In this document: positions 35 to 29,993 of the stretch, one piece after another | Layout of the letters: each line of letters opens with the position of its first letter | How positions within the stretch are numbered: the first letter of the stretch is position 1 | Virus record (IMG/VR): IMGVR_UViG_3300033146_001159 | Location: 1-30,693 of that record | Source: a virus | DNA: 30,693 nt | Reading direction: 5' to 3' (one strand) | The notes under the pieces: model-generated | The model's database searches: none | Told to the model about the DNA's origin: nothing | What the model saw: the letters and a program-made list of their open reading frames with translations, nothing else | Translations under genes and position numbers: made by a program

Positions 35-105
35 AGTGTATGCTCGGAATCGAACCGAGATAATAAGTTCCACAGACTTACGCCCTACCGTTGGACTACA
101 CACAC
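35..105 (-). tRNA. tRNA-His (anticodon GUG)
   Basis: Read on the minus strand, the segment folds as a cloverleaf: 7-bp acceptor (GTGTGTG with CATACAC), U8-A9, a 4-bp D stem closing the loop AACGGTA, a 5-bp anticodon stem TAAGT/ACTTA with loop CTGTGGA, a 4-nt variable loop, and T arm CTCGG-TTCGATT-CCGAG. The anticodon is GTG, so it should read His codons. No CCA is encoded (the 3' flank is TTAAT), so a host CCA-adding enzyme would be needed. It lies just downstream of the 117-671 gene and may be co-transcribed with it. Oddity: with this fold the base before G1 and the discriminator are both U, so the usual bacterial G-1:C73 pair of tRNA-His is not apparent. Confidence 0.88.
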
Positions 106-27080: not shown

Positions 27081-27644
27081 TTGAGTACAGGATATAAGAA
27101 ATGTGAATTAGGTAATGATATGCAATTTTCTGATGATATTATTAATGAAATGTTATTGATATTAGTCGAAGAGGCAAGTGATGATTTTTGGAAAGTATTA
27201 AAATATGGTGCATCAGATGCTTTAACCAATCCTAGTTATACAATTGATTTATCAGATAAATATGATATGGTTAAACAAAATAATTATAACAGTGATGGAG
27301 ATGAATTAACTAGAATTAAAGTTATGAAATTTAATGATGATATATCAAGTAAGGCTCATAGTGAAATAAGGATATTTGATGGTGCATGGAATATTCCTAA
27401 TATTGATTTATTTATATCAGCTTTAGGAATTGAAATCATGTCACATAACAAAATCATAGTCTTAGAAAATGTAGGGAAAACTACTTTGAACTTACTAAGA
27501 CATGAAATGTATAGAATATTTAATAACGCATATGTTTATAAAAATGTTGGAAAATTAATAAGTAATGGTACTAGAGGAAATATAGCTTTGTTCAATTCAG
27601 ATTATCAAGGCTATCAATTTAGTTTCTTTAGTACGTCAGCTTAA
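27081..27644 (+). CDS. putative tail completion/neck protein (187 aa)
   Basis: Start TTG at 27081 with CGGTGAG upstream. The protein is helical at the N-terminus and beta-rich at the C-terminus; no known family. The insertion carrying IscB begins just after its stop codon. The last bases of this gene and the following few bases would supply the IscB guide. Confidence 0.62.
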   Translation: MSTGYKKCELGNDMQFSDDIINEMLLILVEEASDDFWKVLKYGASDALTNPSYTIDLSDKYDMVKQNNYNSDGDELTRIKVMKFNDDISSKAHSEIRIFDGAWNIPNIDLFISALGIEIMSHNKIIVLENVGKTTLNLLRHEMYRIFNNAYVYKNVGKLISNGTRGNIALFNSDYQGYQFSFFSTSA

Positions 27645-27923
27645 TTATATTAAAAGTGGTCAACGACTCACCACTTAGAGCCTAAACTCTTGAAGTGGGA
27701 GCTTGTAAAAGCTCTTGTTGGTTAGATTAAGTATTAAGTTACTACGTTATTTTAGTTATCACACCCTCGGATATTTTGTCTAGTCCGTTGCTCTGTGTAG
27801 GCTCTGTAAACAGTTCTGATTGAGAAGGAACAGTCAACCTAAGTACGTCTTATTGAATAAGTAAGCTATTATAACATTATCGAAGACAAATTACTCAGAA
27901 TACACAGGAGGTTATAAGAACAA
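27637..27923 (+). ncRNA. omega-RNA (HEARO-type guide RNA) for IscB
   Basis: The non-coding leader has several paired elements: AAGTGGT/ACCACTT (27654-27660 with 27670-27676) around a CAACGACTC loop, a GAGCTT-GTAA-AAGCTC hairpin with a GNRA loop (about 27699-27714), and a long-range 8-bp helix AGAGCCTA (27677-27684) with TAGGCTCT (27798-27805). The guide should be the 15-20 bases before 27654, i.e. the end of the upstream gene and the spacer. The 3' end is uncertain, probably near 27860-27920, just before the iscB ribosome site ACAGGAGG. Confidence 0.75.
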
Positions 27924-29162
27924 ATGGTGTATGTATTAAATATTAAAGGCGAACCATTGATGCCTTGCAAAAACGCAAAGGCAAGAAAATTATTAAGAGA
28001 CAATAAAGCAATTGTTGTAAGAAGAGAACCATTTACTATCAAGTTAAATTTCGTATGTGAAAATGTCGTTCAAGATATTACATTAGGAATAGATGCTGGA
28101 AGTAAATTTATAGGTGTTTCTGCAACAACCAAAGAGAAAGAACTATTTTCAGCAGAAGTAGAATTAAGGAATGATATTTCAAAAAAGTTATTGACTAGGA
28201 GACAAAATAGAAGAACTCGAAGAAATAGATTGAGATATAGACAACCTAGATTCTTAAATAGAGTTAAATCTAAAAATAAAGGGTGGTTAGCTCCTAGTAT
28301 TGAACATAAAATTCAAACCCATATAACCATTATTAAAAAAGTACACGAAATATTACCAATTAATAAAATTATCGTAGAGACTGCTCAGTTTGATATTCAA
28401 AAAATTAATAACCCAAACATAAGTGGGGAAGAATATCAACAAGGAAACCAATTAGGATATGGCAACGTTAAAGAGTATGTATTATTTAGAGATAGTCATA
28501 AGTGTCAATATTGTAAAGGTAAGTCCAAAGAAACTAGATTAGAAGTGCATCATATAACCTATAGAAGTAATGGTGGAAGCAATAAGCAAGACAATTTAAT
28601 TACATTATGTAAAACTTGTCATAAGAAAGTACACAATAATACGATTGAATTAAAAGTTAAAAAAGCAAAATCATTTAAACACGCAACTTTTATGGGAATA
28701 ATGAGAAAAACACTATTAAGTAGATTAGATAATTTATATCCAAATATTGAAGAAACTTATGGTTATATAACTAAATCTACGAGAATAGAAAGCAACTTAG
28801 AAAAAGAACATAGGACAGATGCTAGATGTATTAGTGGAAACCCATTAGCAATACAATGTGACCATTGGTATTATTATAAAAAGGTAAGATGTCAGAACAG
28901 ACAAACCCATAGAGCAAACTTTATTAGCGGTCATAGAAAGAAATTAAATCAAGCACCTTTTGCAGTCAAAGGATTTAGGTTATTCGATTTGGTAGAATAC
29001 AATAATAAGTTATATTATATATTTGGAAGGCGTAGTTCTGGACTCTTTGATATAAGACGATTAGATGGTACAAAAGTTAATAAAGGAAGTATTAGTTATA
29101 AGAAAATGAAACTCATTCAAGTAAGAAAAACAATGTTAATAGAAAAGAGATGCGAGGAATAA
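27924..29162 (+). CDS. iscB: IscB RNA-guided endonuclease (412 aa)
   Basis: This is the compact ancestor-type relative of Cas9. Domains in order: PLMP domain (residues 1-45, PLMP at 11-14), RuvC-I with D57 (LGIDAGS), arginine-rich bridge helix (91-113), RuvC-II with E152 (IIVETAQ), HNH with H209-H210, N224 and H233 and a four-cysteine zinc knuckle (C194, C197, C229, C232), then RuvC-III with H296 and D299 (EHRTDA), and a C-terminal target-adjacent-motif interaction region. All expected catalytic residues are present, so it should be active. Start ATG with ACAGGAGG 13-17 bases upstream. It is encoded with its guide RNA just upstream. No transposase partner. Confidence 0.95.
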   Translation: MVYVLNIKGEPLMPCKNAKARKLLRDNKAIVVRREPFTIKLNFVCENVVQDITLGIDAGSKFIGVSATTKEKELFSAEVELRNDISKKLLTRRQNRRTRRNRLRYRQPRFLNRVKSKNKGWLAPSIEHKIQTHITIIKKVHEILPINKIIVETAQFDIQKINNPNISGEEYQQGNQLGYGNVKEYVLFRDSHKCQYCKGKSKETRLEVHHITYRSNGGSNKQDNLITLCKTCHKKVHNNTIELKVKKAKSFKHATFMGIMRKTLLSRLDNLYPNIEETYGYITKSTRIESNLEKEHRTDARCISGNPLAIQCDHWYYYKKVRCQNRQTHRANFISGHRKKLNQAPFAVKGFRLFDLVEYNNKLYYIFGRRSSGLFDIRRLDGTKVNKGSISYKKMKLIQVRKTMLIEKRCEE

Positions 29163-29168
29163 GCAATT

Positions 29169-29192
29169 CCTCCCCGACTTAAGAAGTCGAGG
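29169..29192 (+). terminator. element right-end hairpin, possible terminator
   Basis: CGACTT (29175-29180) pairs with AAGTCG (29184-29189) around AAG, and CCT/AGG pairs flank it with an unpaired CCC. It follows the iscB stop by a few bases and is flanked by GCAATTC and TATCCTTGC, very like the right-end hairpins of IS200/IS605-type elements. The T-run needed for strong termination is missing, so the structural role is likelier. Confidence 0.65.
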
Positions 29193-29219
29193 TATCCTTG
29201 CCTAATGATTGGTGATAAA

Positions 29220-29993
29220 ATGGGATTAAACAAAGAATATAACAACTATTGTACTATTGAAGAAAAGGATATGTGGATACAAGGTTTCCCTTTAAAAACA
29301 GAATATGGCATTATAAAACCTTTGACTATAAAAGAATATAATAGATATTCAATTGAGATTAATTTCTTAAAACTTCAAAATTGGGAGATAGAGAAATTAA
29401 TCAAAAAAGAATATGAAGAAGATGAGATAAAATTAGATATATTAAAAAGTGATTTTAAACGAAATGAGTTTATAACAAATATAAGAAACAATGTTTGTGG
29501 AATTAGAGATGAATACTTGAAAATATTTAAAATATTTATTATTGGATTCGAAGATAAATTCTTTTGGGAAATAAATACCAATGAATTTAATAATCTTAGA
29601 AAGTTAGTATTAGATTTTAATGATATATTTTTATACGAAGCGAATCCTAATCCGGAAATAGAACGATACAATAGAATGAAATCATATATGGCTTTTAAAA
29701 AAGGAAAATTATTAGTATTCGACACTATATTTACAACCTTGATGAGTGGTATAGGTGGTGGACATAGTGTTGATGATATTAACAATATGACTATTAGACA
29801 ATTTCATTCATTATATAAAAGAATTGAATTTATTAAAGCTTATGATACTACAACGTTATATAAAACAGTTGATACCAAAGGTGATATAGAAATCGTTGGT
29901 TGGGATATGCCTATTGATGTCGAAGATAAATCTGAAACAGAATATAAAGATATATCTCAATTAAAGAAACACGGAGAAAGTGTGTTATTGTAA
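29220..29993 (+). CDS. putative tail assembly protein (257 aa)
   Basis: Not firmly recognised. The frame opens at ATG 29205, but that codon lies at the edge of the IscB element and lacks a well-spaced ribosome site. The ATG at 29220 has GGTGAT 4-5 bases before it and begins MGLNKEYNNYCT, so it is preferred. The protein is helical, with a lysine/glutamate-rich segment near 55-70 and a C-terminal 'GGGHSVDDINNMTIRQFHSLYKR' block, which resembles tail assembly chaperone or baseplate-associated proteins encoded before tail tube genes. Whether the original start was moved by the insertion cannot be told. Confidence 0.6.
   Translation: MGLNKEYNNYCTIEEKDMWIQGFPLKTEYGIIKPLTIKEYNRYSIEINFLKLQNWEIEKLIKKEYEEDEIKLDILKSDFKRNEFITNIRNNVCGIRDEYLKIFKIFIIGFEDKFFWEINTNEFNNLRKLVLDFNDIFLYEANPNPEIERYNRMKSYMAFKKGKLLVFDTIFTTLMSGIGGGHSVDDINNMTIRQFHSLYKRIEFIKAYDTTTLYKTVDTKGDIEIVGWDMPIDVEDKSETEYKDISQLKKHGESVLL

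What the first reader, a model, noticed from the sequence alone, without database searches (positions are those of the whole stretch)
27637..29205. Phage-borne IscB with intact nuclease and its own omega-RNA, placed like an RNA-guided homing element
The IscB has all RuvC and HNH residues, a HEARO-type leader RNA and an end hairpin, but no transposase. It sits exactly between two structural genes without breaking either. By the known rule that the IscB guide comes from the sequence flanking the left end, the guide here would be the end of the gene at 27081-27644 plus the spacer (about 27637-27653). The RNP would then cut the empty junction in a co-infecting related phage and promote copying into it: homing without a protein-based recognition site.
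Basis: partly seen in the sequence, partly recalled or inferred. Interest (0 to 1): 0.88.

Follow-up and report, generated by a model that had tools for sequence, protein, structure and literature searches.

The report
Phage-borne IscB RNA-guided nuclease element
A virus of bacteria carries a small, intact RNA-guided DNA-cutting element (IscB, a relative of the ancestor of Cas9) slipped neatly between two of its genes; this is a known kind of element and its built-in guide should cut relatives that lack it, but copying itself into them that way has not been shown here.

Summary
Window 27659-27894 is a HEARO/omega-RNA (RF02033, 104.7 bits) followed by an intact 412-aa IscB (27924-29162; NCBIfam guided_IscB 377 bits; all RuvC and HNH catalytic residues present) and an end hairpin (29163-29201). 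No Y1 transposase lies in the 30.7-kb fragment. Four related viral contigs carry both neighbouring genes side by side with no insert. Same-family alleles in C. difficile phage-plasmids, paralogue boundaries and restored reading frames show that such elements start exactly at HEARO nt 1 and end just before the target-adjacent motif. The guide is therefore 27643-27658, not 27637-27653. The motif here is ATGA (29205) or GTGA (29212). The decisive test, guide against empty site, cannot be made for this phage: its relatives are too diverged and an exact guide+motif search gave only chance hits. In better-sampled phages the empty site matches the guide 15-16 of 16. In Staphylococcus Silviavirus the element is patchy at one site and carries a synonymously recoded copy of its target. 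Best reading: a solo IscB element (IS200/605-derived) with a homing/retention nuclease. Known kind; homing plausible, unproven here.

The parts
27081..27644 (+). upstream phage gene (187 aa, function unknown), kept intact
   Evidence: Orthologues in L002, L008, L009, L010.
27643..27658 (+). predicted 16-nt guide, AATTATATTAAAAGTG (left flank: end of the stop codon of the upstream gene plus spacer)
   Evidence: Left end at HEARO nt 1 shown by paralogue boundaries and an exact empty/occupied allele in C. difficile phage-plasmids; only 0-mismatch copy in the window.
27659..27894 (+). HEARO / omega-RNA, left end of the element
   Evidence: RF02033, 104.7 bits, model 1-211; left-end hairpins z -3.3.
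27906..27911 (+). ribosome-binding site AGGAGG of iscB
   Evidence: Read from the sequence.
27924..29162 (+). iscB, 412 aa: PLMP, RuvC, bridge helix, HNH, C-terminal TAM-interacting region; catalytic residues intact
29163..29201 (+). right-end hairpin of the element
   Evidence: Fold z -3.1; similar hairpins end homologous elements.
29205..29208 (+). candidate target-adjacent motif / right boundary 1: ATGA, 3 nt after the hairpin
   Evidence: ATGA follows the hairpin in most relatives, usually 5-10 nt away.
29212..29215 (+). candidate target-adjacent motif / right boundary 2: GTGA, 10 nt after the hairpin, inside the Shine-Dalgarno sequence of the next gene
   Evidence: Fits the 5-10 nt spacing seen in relatives; position.
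29220..29993 (+). downstream phage gene (PHROG 4051, function unknown); start at 29220 supported by similar starts (MGIKK, MELKK) in L008 and L009

Best explanation
This is a solo IscB-HEARO element, that is, an ISC-type (IS200/IS605-derived) insertion sequence without its own tnpA. It was inserted immediately 5' of an NTGA motif between two genes in or near the structural gene cluster of a bacterial virus. Transcription through the site yields an omega-RNA whose 5' 16 nt (27643-27658) copy the left flank. The IscB-omegaRNA complex then recognises and cuts the element-free allele (left flank joined to NTGA) in sister or co-infecting genomes, and repair from the element-carrying copy keeps or spreads the element. 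The carrier is protected because insertion separates the guide sequence from its NTGA motif: GTCA follows instead. Shown by computation: RNA, protein, empty alleles in relatives; and, in related elements, exact ends, guide rule and purifying selection. Inferred: expression, cutting, repair and spread in this phage; first arrival by a transposase acting in trans.
For: HEARO full-length match and IscB equivalog match with all catalytic residues; AlphaFold model best matched by IscB structures in the PDB. Four relatives empty at the same junction. Homologous elements begin at HEARO nt 1: paralogue boundaries and the pCd11_2 allele, a clean 1862-bp insertion against three empty relatives with no duplication or loss, left flank matching the empty site 20/20, 20/20 and 19/20. 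Joining the flanks restores long reading frames in two relatives (L035 192+200 codons, L011 200+167 codons). Right flank ATGA in most relatives, ATAAA in the C. difficile set. Staphylococcus phage JDF86 against phiSA_BS1: 99.7-99.8% identical flanks, guide identical to the empty site over 16 nt. dN/dS of phage iscB pairs 0.06-0.28. NTGA is the reported TAM of the related nickase IsrB (PMC9581776); HEARO nucleases cut DNA programmed by their 5' spacer (PMC9755519).
Against: No RNA expression or cleavage data. No occupied relative and no allelic empty site matching this guide could be found. The right boundary is ambiguous between ATGA and GTGA. Copying into the empty site (homing) is not separable here from simple retention after transposition.
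Confidence: 0.72

Rival explanations
1. Passive passenger: a non-autonomous IS200/605-type element dropped into the phage by a host transposase acting in trans; the nuclease only matters in bacterial hosts and does nothing for spread between phages.
For: Close relatives occur at many unrelated chromosomal sites and in several copies per genome; a C. difficile phage cousin carries a Y1 transposase; left- and right-end hairpins look like transposase sites; none of the four known relatives has the element at this site.
Against: Intact catalytic residues here and purifying selection on related phage copies; the element in Silviavirus is patchy at one fixed site with a recoded target, which passive transposition does not predict.
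Confidence: 0.3
2. Interference weapon: the nuclease mainly damages co-infecting relatives that lack the element, giving the carrier phage an advantage, with or without copying of the element, as shown for the intron endonuclease gp210 of phage PhiPA3 against PhiKZ (PMC11620839).
For: The same molecular act (cutting the element-free allele) is predicted; precedent in PMC11620839. The target lies at the translation start of a phage gene found in all known relatives.
Against: No fitness data; the predicted target junction is poorly conserved among known relatives, so the range of victims would be narrow.
Confidence: 0.25
3. Domesticated IscB with a new role (for example gene regulation by guide-directed binding), fixed in this phage lineage.
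For: No transposase nearby; it sits next to the translation start of a phage gene.
Against: All nuclease residues intact, and absent from all known relatives of this phage, unlike a conserved domesticated gene.
Confidence: 0.04

Closest known systems
IscB / HEARO (OMEGA) systems of the ISC group, e.g. OgeuIscB and MG35-1
   Same: Same protein family (guided_IscB equivalog), same RNA family, same order RNA-nuclease-hairpin, guide at the 5' end of the RNA.
   Different: No tnpA (typical: few HEARO nucleases lie next to TnpA, PMC9755519); shorter than OgeuIscB (412 against about 496 aa). Over 16% of HEARO loci were already reported as likely viral (PMC9755519), so the phage setting is not new.
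iscB-tnpA elements of C. difficile phages and phage-plasmids (pCD1602_4, pCd11_2)
   Same: Same HEARO family and IscB (46% identity), exact insertion at HEARO nt 1 with no target duplication.
   Different: pCD1602_4 has an intact Y1 TnpA next to iscB; right-flank motif ATAAA rather than NTGA.
Free-standing and intron-encoded homing endonucleases of phages (e.g. gp210 of PhiPA3)
   Same: Predicted act: cut the element-free allele of a co-infecting relative; repair copies the element.
   Different: Specificity comes from an RNA copied from the flank plus a short protein-read motif; homing not demonstrated here.
TnpB gene drive of IS200/605 elements in plasmids (PMC11870625)
   Same: RNA-guided nuclease programmed by the insertion site cuts element-free copies.
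   Different: TnpB/Cas12 lineage, guide from the other end of the element, plasmids; here IscB/Cas9 lineage, guide from the left end, phage.

Membership tests
IscB (OMEGA RNA-guided nuclease) | PLMP domain, split RuvC, arginine-rich bridge helix, HNH | tested here: met
   NCBIfam guided_IscB 376.9 bits; residues located; Foldseek hits to IscB structures, best E 2.8e-28.
IscB (OMEGA RNA-guided nuclease) | HEARO/omega-RNA directly upstream | tested here: met
   RF02033 104.7 bits, 27659-27894, 29 nt before the start codon.
IscB (OMEGA RNA-guided nuclease) | RNA-guided cleavage next to a target-adjacent motif | not testable with these tools
   Needs biochemistry; only the motif candidates ATGA/GTGA are seen.
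ISC / IS200-IS605 insertion sequence | Exact insertion at the RNA's nt 1 next to a fixed short motif, no target duplication | tested here: inconclusive
   Shown for homologous elements; in this phage relatives confirm insertion between the genes but are too diverged to fix the exact ends.
ISC / IS200-IS605 insertion sequence | Y1 transposase TnpA in the element | tested here: not met
   None in the 30.7-kb fragment; so a solo, at most non-autonomous, element.
Homing element | Element absent from otherwise matching alleles | tested here: met
   Four related contigs empty.
Homing element | Nuclease target equals the empty site | tested here: inconclusive
   Guide matches the empty site in C. difficile and Staphylococcus phage alleles; not testable for this phage.
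Homing element | Nuclease-dependent copying into the empty allele | not testable with these tools
   Needs phage crosses.

The most novel reading that the evidence does not exclude
Solo IscB elements of phages are RNA-guided homing elements: they spread between co-infecting phages by guide-directed cutting of the empty allele and recombination, with no transposase. In some phages (Silviavirus) they carry a synonymously recoded copy of their own target that keeps the gene intact and blocks self-cutting.
Probability: 0.4. Interest if true: 0.75.

Novelty: new member of a known kind. Interest (0 to 1): 0.42.

Why it matters
If phage IscB elements do home, RNA-guided nucleases of the Cas9 lineage would act as programmable homing endonucleases whose target is rewritten automatically at each insertion. 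That would give a natural selective reason for keeping the nuclease active without a transposase, and it bears on why Cas9 ancestors are common in mobile DNA. The Silviavirus and C. difficile alleles found here make the question directly testable with cultured phages.

Tried and rejected
Searching IMG/VR for the exact guide plus RTGA gave nine hits, all chance matches without orthologues of the flanking genes in place. The single-protein scan with the downstream gene found nothing. A prophage search in 397 genomes of the family of Eubacterium ruminantium found no relative of the upstream gene, without a positive control. The phage collection holds no relative of the upstream gene. The best ungapped match of the guide region to the four empty junctions was 12-13 of 20 at non-allelic offsets; treated as no information. 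The promoter scan was no better than shuffles. I considered ATAAA (29215) as the motif, as in the C. difficile elements, and rejected it because the spacing to the hairpin (13 nt) and the nearest relatives (ATGA) disagree. A domesticated, nuclease-dead IscB was rejected because all catalytic residues are present.

Full report
Observation. The window is a linear viral contig of 30,693 bases from IMG/VR. A full-length HEARO RNA (RF02033, 104.7 bits, E 7.9e-21) lies at 27659-27894 on the + strand, followed by a 412-aa IscB at 27924-29162 that passes the NCBIfam guided_IscB cut-off more than twofold. RuvC residues D57, E152, H296 and D299, HNH residues H209/H210, N224 and H233, and four zinc cysteines are present, and they align with OgeuIscB. 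The AlphaFold model (mean pLDDT 76.6) matches IscB structures best. A hairpin at 29163-29201 ends the element. No Y1 transposase occurs in the fragment.

Site. Orthologues of the upstream gene (27081-27644) and the downstream gene (29220-29993) lie next to each other, without insert, in L002 (74% and 49-50% identity), L008, L009 and L010. These are the only relatives found in repeated scans of 2.9 million viral contigs. The upstream protein is collinear along its length in all of them, so the element breaks neither gene. The spacer in empty relatives is 20-44 nt; joining the flanks here gives 22 or 29 nt. Both flanking proteins have no known function; the next gene (30055) is a virion structural protein by PHROG.

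Element ends and guide. In genomes with several copies, homology between copies mostly starts at or within a few bases of HEARO nt 1. In C. difficile phage-plasmid pCd11_2 the same element family is a clean 1862-bp insertion compared with three empty relatives: it starts at HEARO nt 1, with no duplication or deletion, and the 20 nt of left flank match the empty sites 20/20, 20/20 and 19/20. In relatives closer to the window element, the right-end hairpin is typically followed after 5-10 nt by ATGA, and joining the left flank to ATGA restores reading frames of 192+200 and 200+167 codons in L035 and L011. So the guide in the window is 27643-27658. The right boundary is either ATGA at 29205 (3 nt after the hairpin) or GTGA at 29212 (10 nt). 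Both fit the NTGA motif reported for the related nickase IsrB (PMC9581776). After insertion the guide sequence is followed by GTCA, not NTGA, which would spare the carrier.

Is it homing? For this phage the answer is open. The relatives are too diverged to compare the junction with the guide, the exact guide+RTGA pattern found only chance hits, and no second occupied genome is known. I therefore looked at better-sampled phages with more distant IscB. Staphylococcus phage JDF86 differs from phiSA_BS1 by the element in flanks 99.7-99.8% identical, and its 16-nt left flank is identical to the empty site. In Silviavirus the element sits at one site in VL10 and six CIFT phages, while some four dozen other records match both flanks without it. 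The CIFT backbone is nearly identical to element-free phages (1-4 differences in 793 nt on the left against Remus, LSA2308 and Stau2) and differs from VL10 at 119 of 2724 flank positions, yet the element itself differs at only 40 of 1540 (Fisher p 0.003). The element is thus shared across diverged backbones, which fits transfer into an existing site, though ancient presence with losses is not excluded. At the right end of the Silviavirus element the start of the resolvase gene is repeated with synonymous changes (AGT AAA to TCG AAG in VL10, AGT to TCG in CIFT; same amino acids TNSKKKGD), so that the guide matches the empty site of Remus 16/16 or 15/16 but its own right copy only 12/16. Phage iscB genes evolve under purifying selection (dN/dS 0.06-0.28).

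Origin. In a tree of 37 IscBs the window groups with another phage copy (L004, 69%), then with copies from a Bacilli MAG and Eubacterium ruminantium; supported branches force at least four changes between phage and bacterial carriers. Many bacterial relatives are multicopy at unrelated sites, and the C. difficile phage cousin carries an intact Y1 transposase. The first insertion was therefore probably by transposase in trans, and homing or retention by the nuclease a later effect.

What is known. HEARO/IscB nucleases are established RNA-guided enzymes; over 16% of their loci were already classed as likely viral or prophage, and few lie next to TnpA (PMC9755519). RNA-guided nuclease drive has been shown for TnpB in plasmids (PMC11870625), and endonuclease-based interference between co-infecting phages for PhiPA3 (PMC11620839). 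HEARO in CIFT Silviavirus phages has been noted without interpretation (PMC13346280). I found no paper in the held library that shows IscB homing in phages, but the library lacks most subscription papers.

Verdict. A real, well-formed member of a known kind, with corrected guide coordinates and an open, testable question about homing.

Noticed in passing
L014 5250-5279 and L105 2836-2865 (Silviavirus VL10, CIFT_MFB_MRSA28) against L106 1290-1319 (Remus): The IscB element carries a synonymously recoded copy of the start of the downstream resolvase gene (TNSKKKGD kept; AGT to TCG, AAA to AAG), so that its guide matches the empty site but not its own right flank. Looks like protection against self-cutting.
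   Followed up: partly
L110, L015, L111 (Baoshanvirus JDF86, Golestan101-M, RSM-J51Sa): Three related IscB elements at three different sites; in JDF86 and Golestan101-M at the ribosome-binding site of the next gene, which is regenerated (AAGGAG or AAGGGG) at the right end.
   Followed up: partly
L013 6340-6741: C. difficile phage pCD1602_4 carries an intact Y1 transposase directly after iscB; L118 (pZ1322PCD0028-2) has only a 53-aa remnant of it.
   Followed up: partly
L021, L033, L038-L040, L043, L044, L046, L055, L068, L071-L073, L075, L076, L079 (Duodenibacillus massiliensis): More than a dozen copies of related HEARO-IscB elements in one bacterial genome, several ending exactly before ATGA that can serve as a start codon.
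   Followed up: no
L110 8825-9057: Group I intron (89.7 bits) near the tail tube gene of Staphylococcus phage JDF86, a few kb from the IscB element.
   Followed up: no
window 35-105 (-): A tRNA gene at the left end of the viral contig (61.4 bits).
   Followed up: no
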